From Paraglaciecola sp. (GTDB taxonomy: Bacteria > Pseudomonadota > Gammaproteobacteria > Enterobacterales > Alteromonadaceae), in NCBI GenBank assembly GCA_009993955.1, contig JAACSL010000007.1:1-64000 (forward strand): 64,000 nucleotides of DNA, in the 5' to 3' direction. Shown here in pieces: positions 20,467-40,191 of this stretch. Both the position numbers and the translations under genes were made by a program. The stretch's first letter is position 1, and every line of letters begins with the position of its first letter. Under the pieces are notes generated by a model, which saw only the letters and a list, made by a program, of their open reading frames with translations, ran no database searches and was not told where the DNA came from.

Positions 20467-20482
20467 TTGATTTATTGGTCAA
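20467..20482. promoter_or_regulatory. Second RutR-like box in the permease / adenine deaminase spacer
   Basis: TTGATTTATTGGTCAA keeps 11 of 14 consensus positions, with an intact right half TGGTCAA. It lies about midway between the divergent permease (20299) and adenine deaminase (20647) starts, so it could serve either. The rest of this 347-bp spacer shows no other clear element. Confidence 0.45.
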
Positions 20483-20646
20483 GTTGAATTTCTCATCGGT
20501 GATAAACCACGATTGTATGAGAATTTGACAGCTATCACGGTGAAGGATAATTTGGGTTTGCACTAAAGTGAGGCGGATTTACCGTGCTTGATCACTTTGA
20601 ACAGGTAGTAAGGTAGACTGCGGGTAAATAGAGTGAGGAGAGATTA

Positions 20647-21654: not shown

Positions 21655-21660
21655 ATGCGT

Positions 21661-22128: not shown

Positions 22129-22145
22129 AGTATTTCCTTGATTAG

Positions 22146-22442: not shown

Positions 22443-22536
22443 GGGCTTCTCTTGGTTAGGCACAATCATCGTCAGTGGTGAGTGTAGCAAATTGCATGAA
22501 GGATAGAGGGATTGATGCATGGATCCCTCTTTAAGG

Positions 22537-24228: not shown

Positions 24229-24270
24229 ACACCCCTCCATTTTTATCCAATATTTAACACGGCAGATAAC

Positions 24271-24358: not shown

Positions 24359-26003
24359 TTAGAACTTGTAGCTAAACTTCGCTTGATAGCTGGTTGGCAG
24401 TTCTGGTAATACAATCTGCGCACCAAACAAGTCTGGAAAGTTGGCACGGTAGTACTCTTCATCCGTTAAGTTTTTCACCGATAAATTAACCGTCCAAGTA
24501 TCTGTTGAGTAGGATACGCCCGCATTCACTAAAGTATAAGAAGGCAACATGACACTTTTCGAGAATCCAGAAAAGGTCGAGTCGGCACGAATGATACTGG
24601 TATTAACCGTAAATCCATTCTGGAAGTCATAGGTAGCTGTTGCCGTATAGATATTCTCTGGAATACCTTGTTTGCGCACATCTTCCAAACTACCGCCGTC
24701 AGCCGCAGATGGGATCAAGGTTAAACCTATGGGGTTACCGCCTAGCACCAGGGAGGGATCCGTTAAGCTGGTTAAGTCTTCAATACCTAAGAAGCCAAAC
24801 AATGAACCACCGTTACCGTTGTTCCAAGCGGTTAAATTATACACTTTCATATTGGTATAACCAGCAGTGACCACTAATTGGTCATTAACTACCCAGCGCA
24901 ACTCAAATTCAGTGCCTTTGTTTTGAGTGGTGGCATTGGTAACAATAGCTTGGGCATTAAAATCGGTTCTTTCTTGTTCATAAGAGGCGAGAGCAAAATA
25001 CAAAGAATCTTCTAAGAAGGAACCTTTGATACCAAATTCAGTTAATGTTGAGGTATCAAACGCACCGTTAAACGCATTGCCATCTCCATCAACCAATTGA
25101 CCATAACCAATTTCGGCCCCTTGACCGGCGACTAAGGTAGCCTGCTCAGCTTGGGTAAAATAAGGAATTAAACCGAAATCAAATTTATAGGAGATACTGG
25201 CATTCCATGAGGTGCCACTGAACGTATCTTCCGCTGTCGCAATTGGCCCTTTATTTAATAACAAATCGCCACGGGTGGTGGTTTTCACATCAATACTGTC
25301 ATAACGCAAACCTAAGACGATGTTCAGACCAAAGTCCCACGTTAAGTCAGTCATAGCAGCAATACCGTAGTCGGTATAATGACCCACGTCATAATTGTCA
25401 AAGTTATCATTGATACGGGTTGCCAACTGACGTCTGTCTAACGCAGTCGAAGGCATCGTTAAATCACGACGGTTAAAATATTCGTACGTGAAATCATCTG
25501 CATGCATGAATTCTGTATGGCGAATCGACGGAGACACTTGCACCTGAGCAAGCAAAGAATCCGTTTCGAATGACTTAGCAAATATCAATTTGTTTTCTAC
25601 GACTGAGCTATCGTGCATTTGTGAGAAGCCGTAGGCATTTTCATTCAAGTTGTCATAAGCTTCGTAGAACAATTGGTTTTTAATTTCCCAGCCACTTTGG
25701 GTGTAATACATGATGTCGAAATACAGGGTATCAACGGTGTTTTCTAAGACATCATCGGCGGCAACCAAGGTTTGGTTGCCTTTCAATTTAGTCGTACCCG
25801 GATTGTTTAACTTCATCAAATCCGTTGCATCGGCATCGGTAAATCCCGGCGCAAAAGGATAGAAAAACCCAGCGCCAGCGATATTTACTGCGCCATATTC
25901 AGCATGAGATATCGAACCATCGTCGTCAGTGTCGAGGGGTTTCGCGGTACCAGTAATATAGGTGCCGTTATCAATTAGATCTTGGGTTAAGCGGTTCCAA
26001 CCA
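24359..26003 (-). pseudogene. TonB-dependent receptor, C-terminal part (gene split by transposon)
   Basis: Encodes the distal two thirds of a TonB-dependent receptor beta-barrel, including LRWVVNDQLVVTAGYTNMKVYN, NGFTVNTSIIRADSTFSGF, WTVNLSVKNLTDEEYYRANFPD and the terminal aromatic residue (SYQAKFSYKF). From the transposon edge the frame reads GWNRLTQDLIDNGTY and continues unbroken to the stop, including an EF-hand-like loop DTDDDGSISHAE at about 25898-25933. The 5' part is at 40187-41000. Joining the two across the 5-bp duplication gives 845 codons. No start or ribosome site exists for this half, so it should be inactive. Confidence 0.93.
25999..26003. repeat. Target-site duplication AACCA, left copy
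   Basis: AACCA abuts the left inverted repeat and is repeated at 40187-40191 just outside the right one. Five-base duplications are the rule for Tn3-family transposition. Confidence 0.93.
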
Positions 26004-26042
26004 GAGGGTCCAACGGGATTCTGAATTTATTTCACAAAAAGT
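26004..26042. repeat. Transposon left terminal inverted repeat
   Basis: Begins GAGGGTCCAACGGGATTCTG and matches the reverse complement of 40148-40186 at 38 of 39 positions (single A/T difference at position 26). Similarity continues weakly for about seven more bases. Length fits the Tn3-family norm of about 38-40 bp; the end is GAGGG rather than the usual GGGG. Confidence 0.95.
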
Positions 26043-26143
26043 TGTTTAAGCTATTGTTATAAATAAACTAAATCTCAAAGCAAAGATGTGATTTTAGGTT
26101 TTTTGGCAACACGAACGTCTTTCAGCTTACTGACAAGATTGCC

Positions 26144-26428
26144 TTATATATCCACCATTTTCGTTATATTGTCTCTGGCGCCCCGGCCTGCCCCAATTAA
26201 AGTCGCTGAACCTAGACTCACCCAGTCTCCATATTCAAACAGCCAGAGTCTGCGGTCTTTTATTGATTGTTCGTCCTGGTTCATCACTTTGCCATCGTCT
26301 TCCAGAATTTCTAATTCTGCCATATGACTCAGCTTAGGTTGAAAACCAGTGCACCAAAACACGGCATCAAAAACTTGTTCAGCGTGGTCCTGCCTCACAA
26401 CGCCTGCTGGGTTATGCAACAGGTGCAA
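26144..26428 (-). pseudogene. C-terminal fragment of an ArsO-like flavin monooxygenase
   Basis: The 94-codon frame encodes FDAVFWCTGFQPKLSHM, an acidic turn, then RRLWLFEYGDWVSLGSATLIGAGRGARDNI. This is the C-terminal third of NAD(P)-binding flavoproteins of the ArsO (arsenic-cluster monooxygenase) kind. The N-terminal FAD domain is absent and a stop precedes the fragment, so it is a remnant. No other arsenic gene is present in the transposon. Family level is likely; ArsO itself is a guess. Confidence 0.55.
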
Positions 26429-26721
26429 TCAGATGATTGAATAGACTGAGTCGTATTGGTTCCGCCACAGCAAACCTGCTTTCAATACAATTGGGTAAGT
26501 ATGGCTAACCTAACGGGTGAAACTTAAGAGAAACTTAAGTTTGAAAAGTGGTCTGCGCTACATGCAAAAATAATGTAAGCACTGATGTTGAAAATTTAAG
26601 CAACACGCTAATTGAACGATTAGTCGTTTCAGCATTATTGTTTCTTCGAGGCAAAATTATAGATAGATGAGAAAGTTCAGAAAACTGCTCTCGTCGAGAT
26701 AAGACCCAGATTTGAGTCTTA
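26429..26721. other. Non-coding stretch in the transposon cargo
   Basis: No gene seen. GAAACTTAAG (26519-26528) is repeated almost at once inside the 12-base palindrome AAACTTAAGTTT (26531-26542). At its right edge GATAAGAC (26698-26705) pairs with GTCTTATC (26716-26723), a hairpin overlapping the stop codon of the unknown gene to the right, possibly a terminator without T-run. Confidence 0.45.
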
Positions 26722-27075
26722 TCATTGAATATCTTGCTTAAACGAAATAACAGGCGCGATGTGATTAAGGCGTCCAGTCCACAGCAACAACTTCAGTTGA
26801 TGAATGTGAAGCACTAGAAATTCATCAATCTCTTCAGTCAAATCTGAGAGCTGAGGAAATAAACACAATAGCTGTGACACTTCAAACATCAGCATCAGTA
26901 AGTCATCAAAGTCATAATAAAGGCCGTCAATAAAAAATCGGTCCACCTCCTGTTCAGCTAACGGTCGATGAATTCGCTGAAGTAGCTGCACTGAGGCGAC
27001 GAGGCGTTGGTAATACTTATGAGTCGAGACGCTTGTTTGCTCGACAAGCTTTGCAACGGTTGGCTCCAGAGACAT
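26722..27075 (-). CDS. Unknown helical protein, third gene of the tRNA-linked block
   Basis: A 117-residue acidic, mostly helical protein; no family recognised. Notable segments are a Tyr/Asp-rich stretch YYDFDDLLMLMFEVSQLL (about residues 53-70) and LVLHIHQLKLLLWTG near the end. The start is well supported: GGAGGGG precedes the ATG at 27075 by a few bases. It follows the previous frame by 19 bp, so it belongs to the compact block running from the tRNA-Pro gene. No signal peptide or membrane segment. Confidence 0.65.
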   Translation of the reverse strand: MSLEPTVAKLVEQTSVSTHKYYQRLVASVQLLQRIHRPLAEQEVDRFFIDGLYYDFDDLLMLMFEVSQLLCLFPQLSDLTEEIDEFLVLHIHQLKLLLWTGRLNHIAPVISFKQDIQ

Positions 27076-27094
27076 AGACCCCTCCTTTTAAGGG

Positions 27095-27451
27095 TTACTT
27101 ATTTTGATGAAGCGCTTCAGCAAGCTTCAACACGGACAAATACAGATAATCGACATCAAAGGCATGAAGTGGCGCTTGCCCTGTGTTCCATGATGATTGA
27201 ATAGACATGCGTCTGGCCTGATAGTGGGTGTACACCTGAGCAAATAAATCTGCAAATGCGCTGACACTTTGGTTCAATCCTTCATGAAACAGATGGACAA
27301 AGGTCGGCCAGTGAAACCAGGATACGCGCATTAGCTGATTTCGTAAAAAAGACAGTAACTCTTCATCCTTTAAAGACGCAGACAGAAAACTCTGTCTGTC
27401 ATCTGGAGGCAACACCACGGAAACCAGTTGCGTCAGAGCGTCCTTAGACAA
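27095..27451 (-). CDS. Unknown helical protein, second frame of the block (may be the 3' part of the preceding gene)
   Basis: The 118-codon frame has no ATG and no clear ribosome site; its only start is TTG at 27451. It lies in exactly the same frame as the preceding gene, separated only by one TAA (27473-27475) and seven sense codons. So it could be a separate, translationally coupled gene, a product of readthrough, or the back half of a gene interrupted by an ochre mutation. Sequence includes VSWFHWPTFVHLFHEGLNQSV and FDVDYLYLSVLKLAEAL. No family recognised. Confidence 0.5.
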   Translation of the reverse strand: MSKDALTQLVSVVLPPDDRQSFLSASLKDEELLSFLRNQLMRVSWFHWPTFVHLFHEGLNQSVSAFADLFAQVYTHYQARRMSIQSSWNTGQAPLHAFDVDYLYLSVLKLAEALHQNK

Positions 27452-27472
27452 AACAACTCGTGCAAGGCAGAG

Positions 27473-28009
27473 TTATACACAAAACAGCTCAAATAAGCGG
27501 ATCGTCTCAAAATAAAGCATTTCATAGTGAGCGCCCGACAGTGGCTCCGCATTGAGCCGGGCAGAATGCACCTCAGATAGTCGTTTAGTCAGGATGTGTT
27601 TTGCGTTTTCTGGTGAAGCCTGTACCGGAGAGAGAGAAAATGCAGTATCTGTACTTAACATCCATTGCTTTTGACCTGACGCTTCAATACTGCGCACAAC
27701 AGACATGATCACCCGCTCGGGCACAATCATATGAAATCGTGAACTAAGCTCAAATTCTGCGTCGAACAAGCGGCTGTTTGCATACACGTATCGACCTCTT
27801 CGGTGATCAAATGGCAAACATTGCTGGGGACTGGAGTAACGATGCAAGAACCAGGTCATTAAAGCCTGATGCTGCTCTTGTTCTGAGGCAGAGGTAAGCC
27901 ATTCGTCTGAAGGGGAAAAAGGATAAAGCTCAACAAAAGAAGTGCTGTGAAAAGCAACATGAGGCAATTGCTTTAACCAGACTTCATTAACAAAGGAACT
28001 GATTGACAT
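27473..28009 (-). CDS. Unknown protein, first gene after tRNA-Pro
   Basis: A 178-residue protein with a strong ribosome site (GAGGAG) before ATG 28009. No family recognised. Segments include VAFHSTSFVELYPFSPSDEW, FDHRRGRYVYANSRLFDAEFEL and HYEMLYFETIRLFELF; the last resembles in pattern the end of the next frame (YLYLSVLKLAEAL), which may only reflect similar amphipathic helices. It starts 32 bp downstream of the tRNA 3' end on the same strand, so tRNA and protein genes may share a transcript. Confidence 0.65.
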   Translation of the reverse strand: MSISSFVNEVWLKQLPHVAFHSTSFVELYPFSPSDEWLTSASEQEQHQALMTWFLHRYSSPQQCLPFDHRRGRYVYANSRLFDAEFELSSRFHMIVPERVIMSVVRSIEASGQKQWMLSTDTAFSLSPVQASPENAKHILTKRLSEVHSARLNAEPLSGAHYEMLYFETIRLFELFCV

Positions 28010-28041
28010 CAGGACTCCTCAAAAGAGTACAGAGCAAAAAA

Positions 28042-28118
28042 TGGTCGGTGATGCAAGATTCGAACTTGCGACCCCTTGGACCCAAACCAAGTGCGCTACC
28101 AAGCTGCGCTAATCACCG
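28042..28118 (-). tRNA. tRNA-Pro (anticodon TGG), inside the transposon
   Basis: A complete 77-nt tRNA ending in an encoded CCA. The acceptor stem CGGTGAT/ATCACCG pairs perfectly, the anticodon stem CTTGG/CCAAG encloses the loop TTTGGGT with anticodon TGG, and the T arm is GCAAG-TTCGAAT-CTTGC. No base change breaks the fold, so it should be functional. It is cargo well inside the Tn3 element, not the insertion target. It would read CCA and, by wobble, other proline codons. A tRNA as Tn3 cargo is unusual. Confidence 0.95.
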
Positions 28119-28169
28119 CCAACTGATTGGGAGAAAATTGTCTACTAAGGTTACCATCATGAGTTATTT

Positions 28170-28190
28170 CATGATAATAATATTATCATG
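28170..28190. promoter_or_regulatory. Perfect 10-bp-arm palindrome upstream of tRNA-Pro
   Basis: CATGATAATA (28170-28179) and TATTATCATG (28181-28190) flank a single central A. It lies 52 bp upstream of the tRNA 5' end and 34 bp after the HU stop. No T-run follows, so an operator near the tRNA promoter is as likely as a terminator. Confidence 0.4.
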
Positions 28191-28223
28191 CCATTACACT
28201 AAAGATGCCATTAAAAAATCTTA

Positions 28224-28502
28224 CTAATCTGCATTTACTTCCTGTTTTAATGCTAACCCCGCAGAAAACTTGGGGTAATTTTTACCTTGAATTTCGATAC
28301 GCTCTCCAGTTCGCGGGTCGCTGCCCAATCTGGAGCCGCGTTTTGTTACGGTAAAGCTCCCAAAGCCGATCAACGTTACGGCTCCACCTTCCGACAACTC
28401 ATCCATAATGGCGCTAGTCAGTGCGTTGAGTACTTGCTCTGAAGTGCTTCTTGGCAATTTTGTTTAGTTTGACATTGCTTGGATTAACTGTTTTTTGTTC
28501 AT
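28224..28502 (-). pseudogene. HU/IHF-type DNA-binding protein gene with in-frame ochre at codon 13
   Basis: From ATG 28502 the frame reads MNKKQLIQAMSN, then TAA (28464-28466), then TKLPRSTSEQVLNALTSAI and the full HU body (GAVTLIGFGSFTVTKRGSR, DPRTGERIEI, KNYPKFSAGLALK). The 92 codons equal a normal HU apart from the stop, which one C-to-T change (CAA to TAA) would explain. A shortened product could start at TTG 28457 but would lack the first helix. So this is either a fresh pseudogene or depends on readthrough. HU could help transposon synapsis or nucleoid binding, but nothing here shows that. Confidence 0.85.
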
Positions 28503-28637
28503 CACAGATACCTTGTAAAGGAGCAAAGGCTCATGTCGTTTATAATTTTATGAGTGGCTGTGCTTCACACGACGTCGTGTACGTTTTCTTCGCTGATTTG
28601 CCAACCACATCGCTCTTCTTTTCATGCTTACACCAGG

Positions 28638-30278
28638 CTAACTAAGCTCAAATTTAGACACTTTATCCTGCAATGCCCGTCCCATAGAGATAAGTCTTTT
28701 TCCCTGCTGCGCGGTCTCATTTGCCTCCAGCGCAGATTTATCCGCTACCTCATTCAAATCGCAAATACGGCGATTGATTTCTTCAACGACTACCGCTTGT
28801 TGTTCAGCGGCAGTCGCTATCTGTGTGTTCATGTACTGCATTTTTTCGATGGACACATTAATCTGTACCGCAGCAGAGCCAGCCTGAGCCACTTCATCGA
28901 CAGCAGTCGCAGAGACCACCTGGCATTCGGCCATGTAGCCGGAGACCTGACGTGAAATCGCTTTTAAGGTATCAATCATCTGAGCAATTTCAGCCGTTGA
29001 GGTTTGAGTGCGGCTGGCGAGGCTTCGTACTTCATCAGCTACCACCGCAAATCCACGACCTGCATCCCCGGCTCTGGCTGCTTCGATAGCTGCATTTAAG
29101 GCGAGTAAGTTGGTTTGCTCCGCTATCGCACGGATCACATCTAAAATACCACCGATACGATCGCTCTCCTGTTGCAACTCTCCCATTGCCGCAGCAGAGC
29201 GTTCAATTTGTTTGGACAATGCCAGAATTTGCTCTTGCGCTTTGTTCGATAGGGCGGTGCTTTGTGTAGATTGCTCTGCTGCGTCATGAGCTGTGGATGC
29301 GGCTTCTTCGCATAATTTCGCCACTGACTCAGCTGTTGCTAATAGCTCATGGATAGCCGTCGCTACTTGTTGAAATTGATTTTTCTCATCAAGAACGAGC
29401 TGGTTTGACGCCTCAGCACGACCTGAAATATCTTCGGCCTGGCCTGAAATCTCAGTAGAGACCGAGCGGATCTCGCTAATCATGGTGATTAAGTCACCGC
29501 GCATGATATCAAGCGATTTCATAACACCTCCAAGCTCCAGGTGTGACGATGAGCCAGATAATTTGCCTCTGGATACTTTATTGGCTAATTCAGCAAGCAC
29601 TTTAGGTTCCGCACCAAGCTGGATCACAATGGATCGAGAGATGAATACCGCAGCAGAAAGGCTAAACACCAGAGCGGCAACGGAGACTAAAATCAGCAAA
29701 AGCCGTTGATTCGGGAAGCTATCTGTTGCCGTTTTTTCTTCTTCATCGGACAGTGCGTGGGCGTAACGGATATACTCTTCTACTTGTGACATCAGTTGTA
29801 AAAGCAAGGGCATACATTCTTTCACTATTCTGCGTCTGGCTTCTTCCATTTGTCCGTGGGCGGCTGTCTCAACAATCTCAGTGGCCACTTTGCCATACAG
29901 TTGCTCAGTGGCTTGCATGCGTTCGATAATCACACGCTCTTTTGGCGTCACATCGTTATCATTTTTGAGTCGTGCTGTTAGTTCTGAAATAGCGCTCATA
30001 ACATTTTGGTGCGCCTCCAAAGCTCTTGTTTGCTCCAGAATTCTGCTATCGCTTGTCGTCACTACTAACATATTACGTGCAGAGATAGCACGAACAGACA
30101 CTTCATTTCTGATCTGCACAGCAATAGAAGACCGCTCGTTAGCCCCATGAAGCACCGCAGTGAGCTGGTGATTCGCGTCGCCGAGCAGTGAAATGGACAA
30201 AGAGGAAACAATCAGCAGACAAAGCAGAACGCCACCAAAACTTGCATACAAAGTATTACGAACAGTCCAAGCTATCAT
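28638..30278 (-). CDS. Methyl-accepting chemotaxis protein (transposon cargo)
   Basis: A 546-residue chemoreceptor. Membrane segments at about residues 7-30 and 190-212 bracket a periplasmic four-helix-type domain ([25 protein letters not shown]). A HAMP region and the signalling domain follow with the conserved tip [20 protein letters not shown] and [15 protein letters not shown]. No C-terminal pentapeptide for CheR docking. ATG 30278 has AGGTG seven bases upstream and was preferred to the start four codons earlier. No che genes accompany it, so it must plug into the host's system. Ligand unknown. Confidence 0.9.
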
Positions 30279-30317
30279 AGTGCACCTCAATGCAGAGCCA
30301 GTGGCCCTTGGTTAGAT

Positions 30318-30503
30318 TCATTCGTCTTGTGTACGTTGTGCAATCCTTGCTTTGTAGTCCACACCATTTGCGTTCAGATAATCACGGATCAACTGCCGCA
30401 ACACCTGAGATGGCGTTATGTCCTGTTGTGCACATAACTCTTCAAAGGCCGCCTTTTTATCAGGGTCAATCAAAATAGTCAGTCTTGCTGTTTTCTTTTC
30501 CAT
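30318..30503 (-). CDS. Ribbon-helix-helix (CopG-like) DNA-binding protein
   Basis: A 61-residue basic protein with a strand (TARLTILIDPDKKAAFEELC) and two helices (TPSQVLRQLIRDYLNANG), the arrangement of a ribbon-helix-helix repressor or antitoxin. No toxin is adjacent: the neighbours are a chemoreceptor gene 39 bp downstream and a spermidine-synthase-like gene 11 bp upstream. It may regulate the cargo operon. The start is either ATG 30503 or ATG 30509. Confidence 0.75.
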   Translation of the reverse strand: MEKKTARLTILIDPDKKAAFEELCAQQDITPSQVLRQLIRDYLNANGVDYKARIAQRTQDE

Positions 30504-30514
30504 AATCACACTAC

Positions 30515-31360
30515 TTATCGTTTGTTATTAGTTAAGTGGCCTGGATGATGTGGTGCTCGCTGTAACGAGCGGCCCAGACTATCCATTTTACAATTCAGAC
30601 GCGCTTCCAGACTGGGCAAGCGCTGATAAAAGCCTTGCATTCCACCACTTTTTTCTAAAGAACCCGCTAGCACAACGGCATTCCCATTCGGGATATAACA
30701 GACCAGTACATCCTCAAAATATCGATACAACGCATTCACCAACTCATCATCAATATCCGCTTTTTGCTCATAGTTAACTATAAGCCAGCCATGTGGCCGC
30801 AGTTGCCGATGACAGCCCTCAATAAAATTGATGCTGGACTGTGCCGGATTCATTTGCATAGCCCAAAATAGGTCAGAAAAAATCAAATCAACCTGCATGC
30901 ACTGCTCGCATACATAATACAAAGCATCCTGACAGACCAGGTTCAAAGACGGTGACGCTGGCAATGCAAAGTATTGAAAAGCCAGTTCTATCACCGCAGG
31001 TCTGATTTCCACCACGGTGAGGGATGCGTCCGGCTCAATATAGTGCAATGTTCTGACCAGGCTACCGCCGCCTAAGCCAAGTAGTAATACGTCCCGGAAT
31101 GGGCATAACGCAACACCGAGTAACATCGCTTTTGTATACTCAAACACAGGATAGTGCGTTTTCAAGACATCCATCTTGCTTTGTTCATAAATCTCATCAA
31201 ATTTCAGTGCCCTGTAGTTATCTTCTTCAACTATAAAAATAGTTCCCCAGTCATCCTCAATAGAGACCAGGCGATGCTCTTCACTGTGAAGTACCGCAGA
31301 GAGCAAAATGATTTTCTCGCGTTCAAACCGACTATCGGTCGAGATACAGCTTTGAGGCAT
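30515..31360 (-). CDS. Spermidine-synthase-like protein
   Basis: A 281-residue Rossmann protein. VLLLGLGGGSLVRTLHYIEP matches the nucleotide loop of spermidine synthases, followed by LTVVEIRPAVIELA, CQDALYYV and VDLIFSDLFWAMQMNPAQSS. The active-site Asp pair of true polyamine synthases (DEYI...DGG) is not obvious, so it may be a related methyltransferase-fold protein rather than SpeE. ATG 31360 has AAGGA eight bases upstream and overlaps the end of the SulP gene by 29 bp, suggesting coupling. The C-terminus is Arg/His-rich. Confidence 0.7.
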   Translation of the reverse strand: MPQSCISTDSRFEREKIILLSAVLHSEEHRLVSIEDDWGTIFIVEEDNYRALKFDEIYEQSKMDVLKTHYPVFEYTKAMLLGVALCPFRDVLLLGLGGGSLVRTLHYIEPDASLTVVEIRPAVIELAFQYFALPASPSLNLVCQDALYYVCEQCMQVDLIFSDLFWAMQMNPAQSSINFIEGCHRQLRPHGWLIVNYEQKADIDDELVNALYRYFEDVLVCYIPNGNAVVLAGSLEKSGGMQGFYQRLPSLEARLNCKMDSLGRSLQRAPHHPGHLTNNKR

Positions 31361-33008
31361 GCATAAATCCTTGTAGCTCTTTAGGTAGCGGAGCATTCTC
31401 AATAATGATGTGTGCTGCGCTTATTGCTTCATGAAAGGTGCCGCAGTGCTGAGCACTGTCCATCAGTTGTGATCTATATAGTTTTTGCTGCACCCGACTG
31501 TTAGCCTCGCTGATGAGAACCTGTACCCCTTGTTTATTGAGGGTGCCGATCGTTTTACGAAGGCTTTCTAAGCCAGATGCGTCAATAAAAGGTACTCCAT
31601 CAAACCGGAGGATCATGACCTGCGTTTCGTGATGGATACTACTGAGCGCATTTTCAACATTCGATATCGCAGCAAAGAAAAACGGCCCTTCAATACTGAA
31701 TACACACACACCATGAGGGAGTATGACGGAGGTATCGGACTGTGGATGCGCGACAACTTCAACACTTTCACTCATGCGTTTCATAAAAAACAAAACCGCA
31801 AGCAATATCCCGACATTTACAGCGACAACGAGATCGGCAAACACTGTCAGAAAAAAAGTGACGAGTAAAATAGCCACATCCGATTTCGGTGCAGTTTTTA
31901 TCATCCGTATAACATGGTGTACCTCAGACATGTTCCAGGCGACGATAAACAATACTGCTGCAAGCACAGACAAAGGGATAAACGAGGCAAGAGGAGCAAG
32001 CAACAGTAACACAAGAACCAGAACTACGGAATGCACCACACCTGCCAATGGGCTTTGTGCTCCCATCCTTATATTGGTTGCGGTACGGGCTAATGCACCT
32101 GTCGATGCAAAGCCCCCAAAAAATGGTGCCACTATATTGGCCATTCCCTGACCAATCAGTTCCTGATTTGGTCTGTGCCGGTAACCCGTCATTCCATCAG
32201 CCACCAAGGCAGAAAGCAGAGATTCGATGGCCCCCAACATAGCAATGGTAAGTGCAGGACCGATTAACTGAAGTGCATGCGCAGCGTCAATAGCCACCCA
32301 CTTAAACTCAGGTAGGCCAACCGGAATACCACCATAGGCAGAGCCGATAGTTTTCACGGAACTCCATTGCATAAACCACTGCACTGACGTCATCACTACT
32401 AAGGCGATAAGTGGTGCTGGAATAGTACGCAATGCTTTGACCTTCGGTACACCAAGTAAGATGGCCAATGCAAAAAGGCCAAGAAGGCTTGTGGTCGCAT
32501 CGACATCGGAAATAGTCTGTAGGAGGTGCCAGAGTTTTTGGTGAAAGTGCTCGCCGTCAGGTTGGGTAAGACCGAGAAATGCAGGCCACTGACTGAAGAA
32601 AATCAGAACGGCGATACCCGCAGTAAATCCGAGCACCACAGGAGCCGGAATATATTGGATCAGACTCCCCAGACGCGTCAGGCCAAGAATGAGTAAAATG
32701 CCTCCCGCCATAACGGTTGCGAGGAGCAAACCACTCATCCCATGACTTTGAACTATCCCGGCAAGCACAACAATAAATGCGCCGGTAGGACCGGAGATTT
32801 GAACTCTGGTGCCACCGCACAAAGAGACAATCACGCCTGCGAGAATCGCGGTATAAATACCTTGCTCTGGTTTGGCACCAATAGCAATTGCAAATGCCAT
32901 CGCTAAAGGAAGTGCGACAATCCCTACAACACAGCCTGCCAAGACATCTTTTACCCAGTTTTTTGAGGAAAAAAGACCTGCTTTGTAGGACTCGATAACT
33001 GCGAACAT
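31332..33008 (-). CDS. SulP-family anion transporter with STAS domain
   Basis: A 558-residue transporter: DVLAGCVVGIVALPLAMAFAIA, GGTRVQISGPTGAFIVVLAGI and GFTAGIAVLIFFSQW are SulP/SLC26 hallmarks, with about 12-14 membrane segments. The C-terminal STAS domain (about residues 440-545) has CVFSIEGPFFFAAI and RFDGVPFIDASGLESL. It imports sulfate, bicarbonate or another anion; the sequence does not settle which. A divergent universal stress gene remnant follows, a pairing often seen with SulP genes. First gene of the chemoreceptor/RHH/spermidine-synthase-like cargo unit. Confidence 0.9.
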   Translation of the reverse strand: MFAVIESYKAGLFSSKNWVKDVLAGCVVGIVALPLAMAFAIAIGAKPEQGIYTAILAGVIVSLCGGTRVQISGPTGAFIVVLAGIVQSHGMSGLLLATVMAGGILLILGLTRLGSLIQYIPAPVVLGFTAGIAVLIFFSQWPAFLGLTQPDGEHFHQKLWHLLQTISDVDATTSLLGLFALAILLGVPKVKALRTIPAPLIALVVMTSVQWFMQWSSVKTIGSAYGGIPVGLPEFKWVAIDAAHALQLIGPALTIAMLGAIESLLSALVADGMTGYRHRPNQELIGQGMANIVAPFFGGFASTGALARTATNIRMGAQSPLAGVVHSVVLVLVLLLLAPLASFIPLSVLAAVLFIVAWNMSEVHHVIRMIKTAPKSDVAILLVTFFLTVFADLVVAVNVGILLAVLFFMKRMSESVEVVAHPQSDTSVILPHGVCVFSIEGPFFFAAISNVENALSSIHHETQVMILRFDGVPFIDASGLESLRKTIGTLNKQGVQVLISEANSRVQQKLYRSQLMDSAQHCGTFHEAISAAHIIIENAPLPKELQGFMHASKLYLDR

Positions 33009-33100
33009 ACGGTTAATATCCCACTTCAAACATTGTAATTAAATTATAATTAAAAACTAATAAAACGCAAATAAACAGAGAGTCAGTCAAGTGTTTTTCG

Positions 33101-33126
33101 TTTACGTTTTCATTTGAAAACGTAAA
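33101..33126. promoter_or_regulatory. Perfect 11-bp-arm palindrome upstream of the SulP gene
   Basis: TTTACGTTTTC and GAAAACGTAAA are separated by ATTT. It sits 93 bp upstream of the SulP start, in the divergent spacer with the stress-protein remnant. There is no T-run, so it looks more like an operator than a terminator. Confidence 0.5.
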
Positions 33127-33242
33127 GAGTTCAAAAATGAAAAGTGAGCACAGCCTGACAATATCGGCCCCTAGCCTTAAAAGCTAGTGACCAAAACTTG
33201 TTCTGGTCGGTTTTGGCCTTCTGTGATTTGAATAAAGTCTAT

Positions 33243-33277
33243 ATTCTAATCATAAAATGATATTTCTTGATTAGAAT
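33243..33277. promoter_or_regulatory. Inverted repeat directly upstream of the usp remnant
   Basis: ATTCTAATCA (33243-33252) and TGATTAGAAT (33268-33277) are perfect 10-bp arms around a 15-base spacer. A weaker pair CCAAAAC/GTTTTGG occurs at 33191-33216. Role unknown; operator or remnant of a recombination site. Confidence 0.35.
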
Positions 33278-33283
33278 AGCCTT

Positions 33284-33657
33284 GTGACTTTTAGGCTTGT
33301 GTTGTTAATTGATTATGATGGCAGCTCGACAGCTCTTAAAGGCTTAGAAATGCTCGCCGGAAGCCCTTTAGTCAAAGGTTTACCTGTGCATTTGGTGATG
33401 GCAGGCGCTGATGTAGATGCAACCAGAATACAGATGGAGAAAGCGGCCAGTATTCTGCGCAAGAGCGGTTTTAGCACAACCAATGCTATTGTTGCAGGCG
33501 AGCCGGAAACGGTTCTGCATCAGTATCAGCAGCAACATGACATTGATCTGATTGTGATGGGCGCATACGCCATTCCCGCATCAGGCAATTTATCGTGGGG
33601 AGCATGACTACGGCAATGTTAAGCGATGCCAAGTGTTCCTTATTGATCCTGCGCTAA
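33284..33657 (+). pseudogene. Universal stress protein, frameshifted and 5'-truncated
   Basis: The frame encodes a UspA domain (LVLLIDYDGSSTALKGLEML, LPVHLVMAGADVDATR, DIDLIVMGAY), like the second domain of the tandem Usp proteins that accompany SulP transporters; the first domain is missing. At about 33568 one base is lost relative to TACGGCCAT. Restoring it gives GHSRIRQ and then SMTTAMLSDAKCSLLILR before the stop at 33655-33657. Without it the product ends early at 33607. Start is GTG/ATG-poor, so the gene is probably dead. Confidence 0.8.
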
Positions 33658-33662
33658 CCTTT

Positions 33663-33691
33663 CAAGGGCCAGTGAACTGGCCCTTGTTTAT
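33663..33691 (+). terminator. Strong intrinsic terminator after the usp remnant
   Basis: CAAGGGCCAGT (33663-33673) and ACTGGCCCTTG (33676-33686) form an 11-bp GC-rich stem with a two-base centre, followed by TTTATT. It separates the left cargo from the transposition genes. Confidence 0.85.
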
Positions 33692-33779
33692 TCAGACGCT
33701 ATGGGTCCATTGAAGGCGAATCTCTGCGTCGCCTGGACTCTACCTCAACCATGTTTAAAGTAACAAACAAATAAGTCCA

Positions 33780-36700
33780 TCATCGTTTTGTTTTTTCATT
33801 GGGGATCTCTAATTGATAAACCATCGGTTCGATCGGTCGGTTTACATCAATGTTGTAGTCACCAAACCGATTGATATATGACGTCCAGTAGGGAGCCAGG
33901 CATCCAAGCAACTCCTGTGTGATTTCATGGCCCTCCGCAGTAAGCTGTTTTAAAATCTGTGTCATTTTCGCGGTGGTGTACAAAATCACCATATTGGCCA
34001 CCAACTGGTTGTACTTCACTATTTTTTGCTGCTCGTAGCGGATATTTTCGGCGATGATCCGCTCACCACCAAAAAACAGCCATTTCTTGTACTGATGGAA
34101 CTCTTCGGTTTTGTTGGTCTCCGCATGAATGGTCTGACGCATGATAGGGTCATCGATGTAGTTCAGCAAGAAGATGGTCCGGATCACTTTCCCAAGCTCT
34201 TTGAAGGCAAAATACAGTTTGTTTTTGCGGCTGTACGTACCTAAACGCTTGAGCAGTGTCGAGGGAGTGATCCGTCCCAGCTTGATAGAGACCATCACCC
34301 GGAGCATGTCTGGCAGGTATTTACGAATAAGCTCAAAATCAATACTGCCGCTAAACAGTGAGTCAATGTGCTGATACTTGGCGTTCTTGTCCGGCCTGAA
34401 GAACCGCAAGTCGTGAATATTGCGAATGCGGGGCATCAACTTGATCCCAAGGAGATGCGACAATCCAAAGACGGTGTAGCTTTGTGCGTGAGTATCGCCA
34501 TGCAGTGTATCGGGCTGAATGTCTGACTCATTTTTTTGCAGAACATCAAGGATATAGACCCCTTCATAGGTGCCACATGGAATAAAGTGGCTGAACAAGG
34601 CAATGTACGTATCCGATACATGGTAATAGCCGATCCCGCCATACCCGCCGTAGCGAATGTGATACTGAGACATCATGTTTTGCTCGTACAGATCCCATTT
34701 GGTGCCATCGGCAGATGCGTGGCTACCATCCCCCCAGAATTTCGGCAGATCAAATTGATTGTACGCATTAATCACTTTGGTGATGGCCTTTTCCAGTTTG
34801 ACCTCGCTGACCTGTTTGATATTCAGCCAAGCCACCTGGCGCGGGCTCAGACCTTTGATGGACCGAGCTGTTTGGGTTGGACCCAGATTACACCCATAGC
34901 AGAACAAGGTCGTAATAAAGCGGTACTGCGGATTGTCCAACCGGCTTTTGTTACCCGAGTGTGGGTAGATGATCTTATGCAGATCCAGCCAGTGCTCGGT
35001 GTCTGTCAGTATATCGACGATACTGGTGGTCTCTAATTTTCCGGTGATCAGCTCCTTCAGTGCTTCCACTTCGTTATCCGGCCGTTCTTTTTTGCCCTTT
35101 TTCAGGCTCAGTCGTCCGGATTTGAGCGTTGCACTGTCGTTGGCAGGAAACCGGGCATCCACCCGTTGAGCCGTTTCGGTCAGCAAGGTTTTTAACTGTT
35201 CAATAAATTCATCCGGCTTATTCACCGGCAGTTCTATTTCCTGCGCGTACCGATCTATTTCCTGCAGATACTCTTCGACGCTGACAAATTCTTCGCGGTG
35301 GTCGTAGTATTCCTGGCCATGAAGGACATGCAGATCTCCAGACTCGAGTTCCTGCTTGATCAGGGTCCATATCGCCAACTCTAAATACTTTCTATGGTAT
35401 TTCACATCGTCGCTGTCGTTCGTTAGCGTCACTTTAATAAGCTTCGCCCATTGGGCTGGAAACAGCGGTGTGAGATCGGCGTCACAGTACTCCAGCACCT
35501 GCTCTGCGGAAATAAACTCTTTATGACTGTTTCGAAGGGCCAGAAGCAGACGAAGTAATTGCAATGAGCTGTCATCACTGGTGGCGCTTTGCAGTTGCAG
35601 CACATCTAGGCAGCGGTACATCAATCCTCGTTTCAACCGGTACGAGGTCAGCATAAAGGGATAAAAGTTGTTTCCTGAGTACGCCAGGTATTCATCACAC
35701 CGCGACATCACCAACGTACTGCCGGGTTTCAGTGCTTCACCGACCGCATCCAAGCGCTCGGTTTCAGAGCTATCCATTTCATACGCCACCGTCACAGCGC
35801 GGAGTGTCTGGATCAGATCCGTGACTTTTTTCTGTTGCTTTAGAATGTACTCATCCAGATTTTTTTGGGCCAGGCTCTCCATCTGCCGTAACATCCGGAT
35901 GAGCATATTGGTCACATCGTCTAAAGCTTTGCCTTTTTGGCCCCGGATCAACAGCACGGCCAGTGCATAGCGCTTGGTGGGTTTGAGTTCCCGCATCTCG
36001 CGCACGTCCAGTGCCTGCGCTTCCGTCAGAAATTGCTTCAGTTTGACTGCAGGGATATGCACGTCCGGCATTTTTTCGGACAAATCCAACAGCCAGGCGA
36101 CATGCTGCAGGTAAAAGTTAATTTCCTTGGCACCGGGTTTCTTTGGCTCTCGCTTGAGCTGCTGCCAGGCACTGTAACTTTGCTCGGTGTCTTTTTGCAG
36201 CAGCGTATCGATGTGCAGCCGGGCCTCGGTGCTGAGACCTTCGGCAATGGTCTTAAAGTAAGCGGTGTTTACCTGATTGCGCATGAGCCGGGCAATGCGT
36301 TGCAGCTCAGAAAAACCAGGCAGTTCGTAGCAAAAGCGAACCAGCTCTTCCAGCATCACGTTGATAATGTCGGAGACATTGTCTTTGGTTTGCGCTGCTT
36401 TTCGCGCCACGTCCATCAACCATGGCTCATCTTCATCGGTGTACCGCCGCACACCCCGAGTGGCCCGAATGTCATCCAGTTGCTTATACCGGCTGGCAGC
36501 GGTGCTGTACGTGGACCATTCGGCCTCAGTGGGCAGGCTGTGGACCCCGGCAAATTTCATCAAAAAGCGGATCAGTGGCAGTGGGAACTCTTTGGGCACC
36601 ACAAAGTAACCCATCCGCTGGAAAAGCTTCAGGTGAATAAGAAAGCCCAGCCGGTGTAAAGGCTTGCGATACGCGCTGGCCCAGCTCAGTTCCAGATCGG

Positions 36701-36785
36701 TCGGTCGATAATGCTTTTCCAGTAAACGAGCGCTGTACTGTGTATCTAAGACGGGATACGCCGTATCCTGATAACCACCTTGCAT
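33780..36785 (-). CDS. tnpA: Tn3-family transposase TnpA
   Basis: A 1001-residue DDE transposase. The N-terminal DUF4158-type region has PLHRLGFLIHLKLFQRMGYFV; the catalytic domain shows WGDGSHASADG, then LHGDTHAQSYTVFGL (second Asp) and the Glu in the FFGGERIIAEN region. Length is typical (about 1000). It binds the 39-bp inverted repeats, carries out replicative transposition and leaves 5-bp duplications, all of which are visible here. It is downstream of the tyrosine recombinase gene on the same strand with an 18-bp gap. Apparently intact. Confidence 0.96.
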   Translation of the reverse strand: MQGGYQDTAYPVLDTQYSARLLEKHYRPTDLELSWASAYRKPLHRLGFLIHLKLFQRMGYFVVPKEFPLPLIRFLMKFAGVHSLPTEAEWSTYSTAASRYKQLDDIRATRGVRRYTDEDEPWLMDVARKAAQTKDNVSDIINVMLEELVRFCYELPGFSELQRIARLMRNQVNTAYFKTIAEGLSTEARLHIDTLLQKDTEQSYSAWQQLKREPKKPGAKEINFYLQHVAWLLDLSEKMPDVHIPAVKLKQFLTEAQALDVREMRELKPTKRYALAVLLIRGQKGKALDDVTNMLIRMLRQMESLAQKNLDEYILKQQKKVTDLIQTLRAVTVAYEMDSSETERLDAVGEALKPGSTLVMSRCDEYLAYSGNNFYPFMLTSYRLKRGLMYRCLDVLQLQSATSDDSSLQLLRLLLALRNSHKEFISAEQVLEYCDADLTPLFPAQWAKLIKVTLTNDSDDVKYHRKYLELAIWTLIKQELESGDLHVLHGQEYYDHREEFVSVEEYLQEIDRYAQEIELPVNKPDEFIEQLKTLLTETAQRVDARFPANDSATLKSGRLSLKKGKKERPDNEVEALKELITGKLETTSIVDILTDTEHWLDLHKIIYPHSGNKSRLDNPQYRFITTLFCYGCNLGPTQTARSIKGLSPRQVAWLNIKQVSEVKLEKAITKVINAYNQFDLPKFWGDGSHASADGTKWDLYEQNMMSQYHIRYGGYGGIGYYHVSDTYIALFSHFIPCGTYEGVYILDVLQKNESDIQPDTLHGDTHAQSYTVFGLSHLLGIKLMPRIRNIHDLRFFRPDKNAKYQHIDSLFSGSIDFELIRKYLPDMLRVMVSIKLGRITPSTLLKRLGTYSRKNKLYFAFKELGKVIRTIFLLNYIDDPIMRQTIHAETNKTEEFHQYKKWLFFGGERIIAENIRYEQQKIVKYNQLVANMVILYTTAKMTQILKQLTAEGHEITQELLGCLAPYWTSYINRFGDYNIDVNRPIEPMVYQLEIPNEKTKR

Positions 36786-36803: not shown

Positions 36804-38045
36804 TTAATCCCAATAACGTCCTGACACTGGCTCCGTCAGGGTGATCTCAATCATGCACTGGTGATCCTGAGCCATGCGATAGAGGCTCGCCAGGAGGTCA
36901 TCAATACGTTCATCCAGTTCCGCATCGTCAGCAACCCGCAATGTCAGACGGTAACGATGATCCACTTCATCGATGCACTCGGCTTTGAGTGGTTTAAGGC
37001 AAAAGCGGTCTATTTTTTGGCGGACTTTCACCGGATCACGACTATTTTTGTGGTACCGCTGCAAGCTGTAGCGAAGTTCCAGCTCGTGTGTACTTAACGT
37101 CTGCACAGGTGCTGGCTCCACCTCTGTGGGAGTAGCAGGCAAAAACGGCACCGGGCTATCCATGTAACGCATGGCGGAATTCAGATCTTTCCAGCCCACG
37201 TATTCCATTAATGCCTTTAGCGACCAGCCGCTTTGACCGGCCCATGTGGCAAAGCCGCGGCGTAAGGAATGGGCGCTGTAGTGTCCTGCATCGGCGACTC
37301 CGGCCACGATGAAGTTTTTGCGCAGCAGTGGCACAATATTTTTGGCGGTCAATGCCGCGCTGCCCAGATGGCCCCAGCGGTTGATGCTACGAAATACCGG
37401 CCCCTCGGTCAGCCCGGCCACCGCCAGATAACGCTCGAGGGCCTGCACAGGACACAGTTGGGCTAAGGCCGGTAATCGATAGACTTCCCCACGGTTGGTG
37501 CGATCCGTTTTGCTTCGACGCAGATAAATTTGCAGTCCTTCCCCTTTGGCCAGTGCAATATGCTCCACTTCCATCCGGCACAGTTCATCGCCACGAAAGC
37601 CACGCCAAAATCCAACCAAGATAAAGGCCCGATCACGACAGCAGCGCAGCAACTCCGGTTGCTCATTCCCGTCAATGGCCAGGGCTTCGCGCTGATCCAG
37701 ACTCCAGACGATTTGAGCCAGCGCCTCCAGTTGCAGAGGTTTGGCTTGTTTTTCCCGGACGGGATGCAATTCACGGATCCCTTTTAGCACCTTTTTCACC
37801 ATCGGTGCTTTGGTCGGATCGACAAAGCCTTGCTCACGGTGCCAGGCGGATAAGCCGGACAGTCGCTGCTTGAGTGTGTTGAAGGTTAACGAAGGTGCGT
37901 AGTGGGCCAGGTAGCGGCAGATCTCTGCGCTGGTTGTCGGCAGTAGCCCCCCAAACTGGGTTTCGAAATGTTCAACCGCCGCTTGATAACTGCGTCGGGT
38001 GTTATCCCGTGTCGCGGCCTGCAGATACTGATCAATGGTGTTCAC
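36804..38045 (-). CDS. tnpS: Tyrosine recombinase, TnpS-like cointegrate resolvase
   Basis: A 413-residue integrase-family protein with an N-terminal SAM-like domain (NTRRSYQAAVEHFETQFGGL) and catalytic residues Arg in GFRGDELCRM, HxxR in AHSLRRGFATWAG and Tyr in AMRYMDSPVPF. A C-terminal extension of about 110 residues follows the active tyrosine, longer than XerC/D. By analogy with Tn4651 TnpS it resolves cointegrates at a site between itself and tnpT. It is divergent from the tnpT-like gene and cotranscribed with tnpA. Confidence 0.88.
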   Translation of the reverse strand: MNTIDQYLQAATRDNTRRSYQAAVEHFETQFGGLLPTTSAEICRYLAHYAPSLTFNTLKQRLSGLSAWHREQGFVDPTKAPMVKKVLKGIRELHPVREKQAKPLQLEALAQIVWSLDQREALAIDGNEQPELLRCCRDRAFILVGFWRGFRGDELCRMEVEHIALAKGEGLQIYLRRSKTDRTNRGEVYRLPALAQLCPVQALERYLAVAGLTEGPVFRSINRWGHLGSAALTAKNIVPLLRKNFIVAGVADAGHYSAHSLRRGFATWAGQSGWSLKALMEYVGWKDLNSAMRYMDSPVPFLPATPTEVEPAPVQTLSTHELELRYSLQRYHKNSRDPVKVRQKIDRFCLKPLKAECIDEVDHRYRLTLRVADDAELDERIDDLLASLYRMAQDHQCMIEITLTEPVSGRYWD

Positions 38046-38218: not shown

Positions 38219-38304
38219 ATTAGAAATGATGAAATTTTGACTATTTTTATTTTTGATTTAGTATGTATATACATATTACGTATTAGTACGAAATGGAGTT
38301 AATC

Positions 38305-39312
38305 ATGGCCAGAACCGGGATCACCAAAGACGATGTAAAAGACGCCAGACAGCGGCTGATAGACGAAGGTCAGTCGGTTACGTTGGATTCGTTGCGTATT
38401 GAGCTGGGCAATACCGGTTCCCGGTCAACCATACAGCGCTGGCTCCGGGAGTTGGAGAATGACGACTCGACCTTGTTGATGGATGAACAGCTTCTGACGG
38501 AGGCGATCAAGACGACGGTGCTGCAATTGGCTAGACGACTGCAGGAAGAGGCTTTGGCCAAAGTAGAACAAGCAGAGGCCATGCATAAAACTGCCCAAGC
38601 GAATTGGCAGCAGCTGGCGGACAACCTGCGTACTCAAATTCAGGATTTGACGGCGCAAACCGACGACATGCAGCGAAAGCTCTCATCATCCGAAGACAGC
38701 AATAAAAAACTTCAGGAAGCCAGACAGCAGGATGCACTCACAATGGCGGAACTCTCCGGTGTAAATGCCCATCTGAAAAGCCTGCTCGCCACCAAAGATC
38801 AGCATATTAGCTCTCTGGAAGACAAACATCAGCATGCCAGACAAGCACTTGAACATTACCGAGCTTCTGTCCAAACGCAGCGTGAGCAGGACGTACAACG
38901 CCATGAACACCAGATCCAGCAGGTGCAGGCTGATCTTCGCCTGGCGCAACAAACTGTGATGGTGAAACAGCAGGAAGTGAGCACTCTACAGGCGCAGGTA
39001 CAGCAATTAACAGCCACGCTGCAGCATACAGAGACTACATCCGCGCAGTTGAAGGAACAGCTGGGTAGTCTTCAGACTGAGCGACGTCAATTGGAGCGTC
39101 AGTTGGAACATCGAGATACACTGTATGCGGAGCTGCAAAAGGTATTTGATGCGAAATGCCACGATGTACAGGAATTGCAGGCCCATATTTCGAGCGTGAA
39201 AACACAAGAAACGACCTGGTTACAGGAAAAGGCCGCATTAACAGCGACCTTGGCCACTCAGCAGCAACTGTGGCAGCAGTTTTCACGCAGTTCAGTAGCA
39301 CCTGCATCCTGA
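38305..39312 (+). CDS. tnpT: TnpT-like protein (KfrA N-domain plus coiled coil)
   Basis: A 335-residue protein. Residues 1-110 form a KfrA-type DNA-binding domain (GITKDDVKDARQRLIDEGQSVTLDS, STIQRWLRELEN). Residues about 80-330 are a long Gln/Leu-rich coiled coil. In Tn4651, TnpT assists TnpS in cointegrate resolution. ATG 38305 follows GGAG by six bases; the frame opens four codons earlier. A palindrome immediately upstream could allow self-regulation, as in KfrA. Confidence 0.85.
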   Translation: MARTGITKDDVKDARQRLIDEGQSVTLDSLRIELGNTGSRSTIQRWLRELENDDSTLLMDEQLLTEAIKTTVLQLARRLQEEALAKVEQAEAMHKTAQANWQQLADNLRTQIQDLTAQTDDMQRKLSSSEDSNKKLQEARQQDALTMAELSGVNAHLKSLLATKDQHISSLEDKHQHARQALEHYRASVQTQREQDVQRHEHQIQQVQADLRLAQQTVMVKQQEVSTLQAQVQQLTATLQHTETTSAQLKEQLGSLQTERRQLERQLEHRDTLYAELQKVFDAKCHDVQELQAHISSVKTQETTWLQEKAALTATLATQQQLWQQFSRSSVAPAS

Positions 39313-39337: not shown

Positions 39338-39547
39338 ATGGCCCTAACGGATGAACAGTCACAAGAACTCATGGACGCCATCATAGAAAAATGTGAAACC
39401 ATGGAGCTATCGCCGGAGGAAATCATTGATGGTTTAGGGCTGGCGCTTATGAGTGCCACTATGGCCTTTGAAAAGCAGTCAGCTTCCATAACTGTAGAAG
39501 GCGTAGGCTACTGCGATGTTGTTTTAGAAACCGTAAACTCACTGTGA
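39338..39547 (+). CDS. Small acidic protein, unknown (overlaps GIY-YIG gene)
   Basis: A 69-residue acidic protein with a helical N-terminal half (SQELMDAIIEKCETMELSPEEIIDGLGLALM) and a strand-forming end (ITVEGVGYCDVVLETVNSL). No family recognised. Its stop codon overlaps the GTG start of the next gene (GTGA), so the two are probably coupled. It lies 25 bp after the tnpT-like gene. It could be a partner or inhibitor of the nuclease-like protein, but this is only suggested by position. Confidence 0.6.
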   Translation: MALTDEQSQELMDAIIEKCETMELSPEEIIDGLGLALMSATMAFEKQSASITVEGVGYCDVVLETVNSL

Positions 39548-40086
39548 GCATGAAGCCAAGACAGCGGGTGAATGCTATGCCACATTGGTGGCAACAGCAG
39601 CACGGAGTAGGTGGGCTTATATTTCATGATGAAATTATCTTAGCTCCAGACAACTATGACTTAAACCCCAACAGCAAATGGGCACACTTTAAAACTACCC
39701 AGCTAAAATTGCAGTGTCCAACGCCACAAAACATTTCCCAAGATATGTTCAGGCGTATTCACCCGAGCCAAAAGAATAGCGCCAACGTGAACGATCATGC
39801 CGAAATGCAGTCATTGCCGACAAGACCGGGTTATTATGCTGTGATCCGTGACAAACAGGTTCTGTACGTCGGTGCCTCGAGTGACCTTAGAGAACGATGC
39901 CATCGATTCATTGGCAAGGGGGAGATAGCAGACCGGCTTTACTTCTGGATCTGGCGCTATCCGTATTTTTTGGAATACATCTTGATTTCGTTCCTAGCAC
40001 CAAAGGACAACTGCCACGGTAAGTACACTAAGTTTCCGGCTATATGCGCTTGGAACGGTAAATTCAGAGAAGAATTGGATTTTTAA
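39544..40086 (+). CDS. GIY-YIG nuclease-like protein at the transposon right end
   Basis: A 180-residue protein with a GIY-YIG-type domain in its C-terminal half: PGYYAV (95-100), LYVGASSDLRERCH (107-120) with the conserved Arg, and Glu144 in FLEYILISFLAPKDN, the usual metal-binding glutamate followed by the Pro/Asn pattern. The N-terminal 90 residues have no recognised fold but contain MPHWWQQQHG. Catalytic positions look conserved, so nuclease activity is plausible. Start GTG 39544 overlaps the preceding stop; ATG 39550 is the alternative. It ends 62 bp before the right inverted repeat. Confidence 0.7.
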   Translation: MSMKPRQRVNAMPHWWQQQHGVGGLIFHDEIILAPDNYDLNPNSKWAHFKTTQLKLQCPTPQNISQDMFRRIHPSQKNSANVNDHAEMQSLPTRPGYYAVIRDKQVLYVGASSDLRERCHRFIGKGEIADRLYFWIWRYPYFLEYILISFLAPKDNCHGKYTKFPAICAWNGKFREELDF

Positions 40087-40147
40087 AAAGTCTCGTAAAA
40101 GCGTGATCACATCAATTTATATATTAATACTATCAATGCTTTAAATC

Positions 40148-40186
40148 ACTTTTTGTGAAAAAAATTCAGAATCCCGTTGGACCCTC
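40148..40186. repeat. Transposon right terminal inverted repeat
   Basis: Reverse complement matches the left repeat at 38 of 39 positions and ends GAGGGTCC when read inward. The outer edge is at 40186, next to the AACCA duplication. Confidence 0.95.
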
Positions 40187-40191
40187 AACCA
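40187..40191. repeat. Target-site duplication AACCA, right copy
   Basis: Identical to 25999-26003. One copy belongs to the original receptor gene, where it is part of the codons for Gly-Trp read on the minus strand. Confidence 0.93.

What the first reader, a model, noticed from the sequence alone, without database searches (positions are those of the whole stretch)
28042..28118. Intact tRNA-Pro(TGG) gene carried as cargo by a Tn3-family transposon
All stems pair, CCA is encoded, and the gene is 2 kb inside the element, so it is cargo and not an insertion target. Tn3-family cargo is normally resistance or catabolic genes. A mobile proline tRNA could compensate for codon bias of the cargo, replace a host tRNA cut by an anticodon nuclease, or be a captured fragment of a former genomic island end.
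Basis: partly seen in the sequence, partly recalled or inferred. Interest (0 to 1): 0.75.

Follow-up and report, generated by a model that had tools for sequence, protein, structure and literature searches.

The report
Transposon carrying a foreign proline tRNA
A jumping DNA element in this bacterium carries an intact proline tRNA gene that matches relatives of other genera exactly and differs from the host's own copy, most likely as a hitchhiking piece of a former host's chromosome with no demonstrated role.

Summary
28042-28118 (minus strand) is a complete tRNA-Pro(TGG) gene with encoded CCA. It lies 2.0 kb inside a 14.2-kb Tn3-family, Tn4651-subgroup transposon at 26004-40186: 46-bp inverted repeats (43/46), AACCA 5-bp duplications, TnpA/TnpS/TnpT, inserted in a TonB-receptor gene. 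The site is empty in 9 of 9 relatives' loci examined. The tRNA is foreign to the genus: 41 of 117 other family genomes sampled have an identical gene, but 0 of 21 same-genus genomes do (best 94%), and the host's own copy is 90% identical. The cargo is a patchwork of captured and broken pieces. Of 36 stretches from related elements, none showed a tRNA inside the element. Codon compensation and anticodon-nuclease escape are not supported: proline codons are not enriched and the anticodon arm equals the host's. Best reading: a passively captured chromosomal tRNA gene riding in decaying cargo. Unusual, a singleton in what I searched; expression and function are not shown.

The parts
28042..28118 (-). 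tRNA-Pro(TGG) gene with encoded CCA
   Evidence: identical over 77 nt to a gene in 41 of 117 other family genomes sampled
26004..26049 (+). left terminal inverted repeat, 46 bp
40141..40186 (-). right terminal inverted repeat, 46 bp, 43/46 to the left one
25999..26003 (.). target duplication AACCA, left
40187..40191 (.). target duplication AACCA, right
33780..36785 (-). TnpA, Tn3-family DDE transposase, 1001 aa
   Evidence: Pfam DDE_Tnp_Tn3 E 7.8e-142; NCBIfam transpos_Tn3, 652 bits over a cut-off of 500
36804..38045 (-). TnpS-like tyrosine recombinase (resolvase)
   Evidence: Pfam Phage_integrase; beside tnpA and divergent from the next gene
38293..39312 (+). TnpT-like resolvase helper (KfrA_N domain)
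   Evidence: divergent from tnpS as in the Tn4651 subgroup (passages of PMC7157771)
27473..28009 (-). orphan ORF, 178 aa, starts 32 nt after the tRNA; in frame with 27095-27451 across one stop codon, so probably a broken gene
   Evidence: no relative; weak match to phrog_17908, unknown function, E 1.1e-4; the weak hit is to a longer frame that looks unrelated
27095..27451 (-). second piece of the same frame, 118 aa
   Evidence: no family
26722..27075 (-). orphan ORF, 117 aa; sub-threshold resemblance to RegB endoribonuclease
   Evidence: Pfam E 0.048, 14.2 bits against a cut-off of 27; PHROGs E 0.034
28224..28457 (-). HU-type DNA-binding protein fragment lacking the start of the domain in this frame (profile 18-90 of 90)
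   Evidence: Pfam Bac_DNA_binding E 1.5e-20
28638..30290 (-). methyl-accepting chemotaxis protein, cargo
30318..30509 (-). ribbon-helix-helix protein (RHH_9), cargo
30515..31402 (-). spermidine-synthase-like / methyltransferase protein, cargo
   Evidence: below curated cut-offs; PADLOC mads_2 E 2.9e-12
31332..33029 (-). SulP-family anion transporter, cargo
33313..33685 (+). 3' fragment of a universal stress protein gene, up to 91% DNA identity to other genera of the family
26416..26547 (.). 132-bp captured piece, 93% to the start region of a PAP2-like gene in genus g45
   Evidence: the name PAP2 is recalled from reading the sequence, not from a profile search
39544..40086 (+). GIY-YIG-like protein at the right end (weak matches to the UvrC and exonuclease models in the region that I take to be GIY-YIG)
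   Evidence: E 1.4e-4 at best and far under cut-offs; the name GIY-YIG is recalled

Best explanation
The tRNA gene is a fragment of another bacterium's chromosome that was captured, probably in a host of another genus of the same family, into the space between the left terminal repeat and tnpA of a Tn4651-subgroup Tn3 transposon. It then travelled with the element into this genome, where the transposon inserted into a TonB-receptor gene. It is structurally a working gene and may give extra tRNA-Pro if a cargo transcript runs through it, but it most likely has little or no selected role. Shown: intact gene, position inside a bounded element, empty site in relatives, foreign sequence type, patchwork and partly broken cargo. 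Inferred: donor lineage, route of capture, replicative transposition (from the family), expression, near-neutrality.
For: Intact gene. Repeats and AACCA duplication. Of 22 genus genomes searched, own included, 20 match the receptor's barrel half; in the 9 relatives' loci that I compared, the two flanks abut with exactly the 5-bp overlap. One copy of the element in this genome. tRNA identical in 41 of 117 other genomes; the 6 loci with an identical gene that I opened lie in tRNA-Pro/Arg/His clusters (L074-L077; L166, L167). 0 of 21 same-genus genomes identical, best 94%; host's own TGG copy has 8 differences. Two other cargo pieces match genus g45 at 87-93%, and the tRNA is identical in 3 of 3 g45 genomes. 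Truncated usp, HU fragment and a frame split by a stop show decay around it. The two closest sister elements (TnpA 87%, genus g17) have their repeat about 60 bp from tnpA, so no cargo on that side, and no tRNA.
Against: The tRNA carries no change from the common family type although neighbouring genes are broken; that could mean selection or only recent capture. No long shared flank: among the rows listed, alignments reach at most about 13 nt upstream (G021) and 18 nt downstream (G155), with mismatches, so donor and junctions are not shown. The usp fragment's best match (91%) is in one g17 genome whose tRNA is 96%, so a single donor is not established. Some neighbouring ORFs have weak resemblances that a functional reading could use (RegB-like, mads_2-like, GIY-YIG-like).
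Confidence: 0.72

Rival explanations
1. Functional passenger: the tRNA raises proline-tRNA supply in new hosts, or supplies a variant that escapes a tRNA-acting factor, and is kept for it.
For: The gene is unmutated in decaying cargo. A similarity search finds only one other TGG gene in the host, whereas 6 of 6 opened other-genus loci hold two or more. The differences from the host copy lie in the acceptor, D and T arms. ORF 26722-27075 has a weak RegB-like match.
Against: Proline codons not enriched and CCA share similar; anticodon arm identical to the host's; no tRNA inside the elements in 36 stretches examined; promoter-like matches in 26000-30000 no more than chance (5 found, 6.1 expected).
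Confidence: 0.13
2. Remnant of a genomic island or other element that integrated at a tRNA-Pro gene and was later swallowed by the transposon.
For: tRNA 3' ends are usual integrase targets (general knowledge); unknown ORFs follow directly, one with a weak match to a PHROGs family of unknown function.
Against: Whole gene, not a 3' fragment; with up to 5 substitutions allowed, the only copy of its 3' end in the element is itself; no integrase recognised among the cargo proteins scanned.
Confidence: 0.12
3. Phage-derived tRNA.
For: 288 phage records hold similar sequence; some cargo proteins match PHROGs families (for example the chemotaxis protein, phrog_8572, unknown function, E 3.5e-75; HU fragment, E 2.9e-18; ORF 27473-28009, E 1.1e-4).
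Against: Identity in the 10 listed phage records is at most 86%, and only 3 of 288 records have a best piece at 90-95%, none higher, against 100% for bacterial genomes of the family. No phage structural or integration protein was recognised.
Confidence: 0.02

Closest known systems
Tn4651 subgroup of the Tn3 family (TnXax1 as structural model)
   Same: tnpA; divergent tnpS/tnpT; passenger genes at the ends; terminal repeats of the same GAGGGTC...GGGATTC type as in related elements that I compared
   Different: Passenger includes a tRNA gene; the held main text of PMC7157771, seen by a term search and passages, has no occurrence of tRNA
Transposon module on Proteus mirabilis plasmid NZ_CP077964.1
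   Same: TnpA 97.3% identical in protein; DNA 91% over pieces between 33818 and 39580; a repeat with 2 mismatches of 23
   Different: No tRNA in the 35.7-kb stretch; efflux genes and a MazF-like pair instead of this cargo
Elements in G725 and G776 (genus g17, same family)
   Same: TnpA 87%, DNA 74%, same repeat type
   Different: Repeat about 60 bp from tnpA, no cargo on that side, no tRNA
tRNA arrays on plasmids, phages and mycobacterial genomes
   Same: tRNA genes on mobile DNA
   Different: Those are clusters of many tRNAs (abstract starts of PMC5966550 and PMC12803027); here it is one gene in a unit transposon

Membership tests
Tn3 family, Tn4651 subgroup | Tn3-type DDE transposase | tested here: met
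Tn3 family, Tn4651 subgroup | tyrosine recombinase TnpS and divergent helper TnpT | tested here: met
   Domains and gene order, layout as in passages of PMC7157771
Tn3 family, Tn4651 subgroup | long terminal inverted repeats like those of related elements | tested here: met
   46 bp, 43/46; GAGGG...GGGATTC start also found in related elements with up to 2 substitutions
Tn3 family, Tn4651 subgroup | 5-bp target duplication | tested here: met
   AACCA on both sides and empty site
Tn3 family, Tn4651 subgroup | rst resolution site between tnpS and tnpT | not tested
   Spacer 38046-38292 is present; its sites were not mapped
tRNA-Pro(TGG) gene | tRNA structure, anticodon, CCA end | tested here: met
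tRNA-Pro(TGG) gene | transcribed, processed and charged | not testable with these tools
   no RNA data
Integrase-type island at tRNA-Pro | duplicated tRNA 3' end and adjacent integrase | tested here: not met

The most novel reading that the evidence does not exclude
A Tn3-family transposon that delivers a working foreign tRNA as a selected passenger: the tRNA, unmutated amid broken cargo and differing from the host's only outside the anticodon arm, adds a tRNA-Pro that host RNases or modification control treat differently, linked to the unknown genes that begin 32 nt downstream, one of which weakly resembles the RegB endoribonuclease.
Probability: 0.08. Interest if true: 0.7.

Novelty: new variant of a known kind. 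Interest (0 to 1): 0.36.

Why it matters
It documents a tRNA gene moved between genera by a unit transposon, a route for adding tRNA genes that is distinct from islands, phages and plasmid tRNA arrays. If passive, it shows how these transposons pick up chromosomal scraps; if active, it would be a new class of passenger.

Tried and rejected
Codon compensation: proline use in 9 element ORFs and 26 neighbouring ORFs of the window (ORFs picked by me; the piece 27095-27451 and the 62-aa ORF were left out), not supported. Anticodon-nuclease escape: the anticodon arm is unchanged. Duplicated 3' end: none. Similarity of the tRNA region to the tnpS-tnpT spacer: longest shared run 8, reached by 38 of 100 shuffles. 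Phage origin: lower identity. Internal copies of the repeat that could mark nested insertions: best 15 of 23. The orphan ORF 27473-28009: no relative in viral contigs or genome contigs, no PDB match, structure prediction without an alignment uninformative (mean pLDDT 37); weak PHROGs match only. PADLOC: mads_2 for 30515-31402 and a weak UzuA match for 39544-40086; TnpT gives weak matches to long coiled-coil models, which I take for chance coiled-coil similarity. Literature: searches listed no paper whose title or shown abstract start describes a tRNA gene as cargo of a Tn3-family transposon. Listings were capped (20 of 107, 15 of 26, 25 of 28), only open-licence PMC papers are held, and only PMC7157771 was opened, by term passages.

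Full report
What is there. The window holds one tRNA gene, tRNA-Pro(tgg), 28042-28118 on the minus strand, scoring 63.9 bits against Rfam's tRNA model (threshold 29) with no non-standard pair marked; CCA is encoded.

The element. Its ends are 46-bp inverted repeats at 26004-26049 and 40141-40186, 43 of 46 identical, flanked by AACCA at 25999-26003 and 40187-40191. It carries a Tn3-family transposase, a tyrosine recombinase and a divergent KfrA_N protein, the tnpA/tnpS/tnpT layout of the Tn4651 subgroup as described in passages of PMC7157771. It is present once in this genome. The flanking genes are two halves of one TonB-dependent receptor. Of 22 genus genomes searched, own included, 20 match the receptor's barrel half. 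In the 9 relatives' loci that I compared, the two flanks abut with an overlap of exactly the 5 duplicated bases and no insertion. So the tRNA came with the element.

Where the tRNA comes from. A similarity search finds two other tRNA-Pro genes in the host: TGG in an Arg-His-Pro cluster, 90% identical (8 differences), and GGG, 79%. None of 21 same-genus genomes has an identical gene; the best is 94%. Of 117 other genomes of the family sampled (4 of them same-genus), 41 have a gene identical over all 77 bases; I counted these by hand from the genome table (E below 5e-34). The 6 loci with an identical gene that I opened hold tRNA-Pro/Arg/His clusters (L074-L077; L166 and L167). The element's tRNA is therefore a common type of other genera, foreign to this one. 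No long flank is shared: alignments in the listed rows reach at most about 13 nt before and 18 nt after the gene, with mismatches; the printed flanks of the six opened loci show little beyond a T-rich start downstream.

The cargo. Two other pieces of the 7.7-kb cargo match other genera of the family in DNA (395 genomes): 33313-33685 is the 3' part of a universal stress protein gene (91% to one g17 genome, 87% to two g45 genomes), and 26416-26547 matches the start region of a PAP2-like gene in g45 at up to 93%. In the two loci that I read, that usp gene follows a SulP gene, but the element's own SulP gene does not align to the part of it held there. The tRNA is identical in 3 of 3 g45 genomes, so a g45-like donor is plausible, not shown; the best usp match is in g17, whose tRNA differs. 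Around the tRNA genes look broken: an HU fragment without the start of its domain in frame, and an orphan frame split by one stop.

Is it recurrent? Two sister elements in g17 (TnpA 87%) have the repeat about 60 bp from tnpA, so cargo on that side varies and is probably a later gain here. I ran ARAGORN on 36 stretches from related elements: 22 (donor loci L166 and L167 of that call not counted) and 14. Of these, 21 of the 22 have a transposase match, the other being the part of pWW0 fetched, L191 continues L179, so there are 13 elements. One stretch, L154, had tRNAs (Cys, Gly), but about 5 kb beyond the repeat that ends the element next to tnpA. Limits: many stretches are cut by contig ends or by my 20-kb windows, both ends were located in only a few, and some belong to other Tn3 subgroups. 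Three fetched stretches (L145, L146, L149) were not scanned. In what I searched, the tRNA passenger is a singleton.

How it most likely works. The transposon moved in the way usual for its family; the tRNA was passively captured and is carried along. Whether it is transcribed is unknown: promoter-like matches in 26000-30000 are no more than shuffles give (5 against 6.1). Against special roles: proline codons are 3.5% of element codons and 4.2% of neighbouring codons, with a similar CCA share though a higher CCG share in the element; the anticodon arm is identical to the host's. For a possible role: the tRNA is unmutated while its neighbours decay, and a neighbouring ORF has a sub-threshold RegB endoribonuclease match (Pfam E 0.048; PHROGs E 0.034). 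That weak match came up clearly only on checking and does not change my odds. I hold passive capture at 0.72.

Novelty. The element is an ordinary Tn4651-subgroup transposon with an unusual passenger, a new variant of a known kind. I saw no report of this in nine literature searches over open-licence PMC papers, judged from capped listings and abstract starts.

Noticed in passing
33818-39580: The transposition module is 91% identical in DNA (TnpA 97% in protein) to one on a Proteus mirabilis IncC plasmid (NZ_CP077964.1), linking this genome's element with a clinical plasmid.
   Followed up: partly
51141-51309: Molybdenum cofactor riboswitch, 70.1 bits, at the start of the ORF frame 51259-52269.
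   Followed up: no
26722-28009: Orphan ORFs directly after the tRNA; one frame is split by a stop, one ORF weakly resembles RegB endoribonuclease, one weakly matches phrog_17908.
   Followed up: partly
28163-28197: AT-rich inverted repeat (two 17-nt arms, 82% complementary, 1 nt apart) upstream of the tRNA, unexplained.
   Followed up: no
18971-24240 and 41325-44067: Purine-type genes (two xanthine/uracil-type permeases, adenosine deaminase, purine nucleoside permease, amidohydrolase) on both sides of the disrupted receptor, suggesting that the receptor served purine uptake (inference).
   Followed up: no
L105, L106: A conserved block of SulP transporter, universal stress protein and NUDIX-like gene (names read from sequence) in two genera, with two usp matches in one genome; it may itself be mobile.
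   Followed up: no
30515-31402: Spermidine-synthase-like cargo protein matches the PADLOC model mads_2 (E 2.9e-12, residues 102-239).
   Followed up: no
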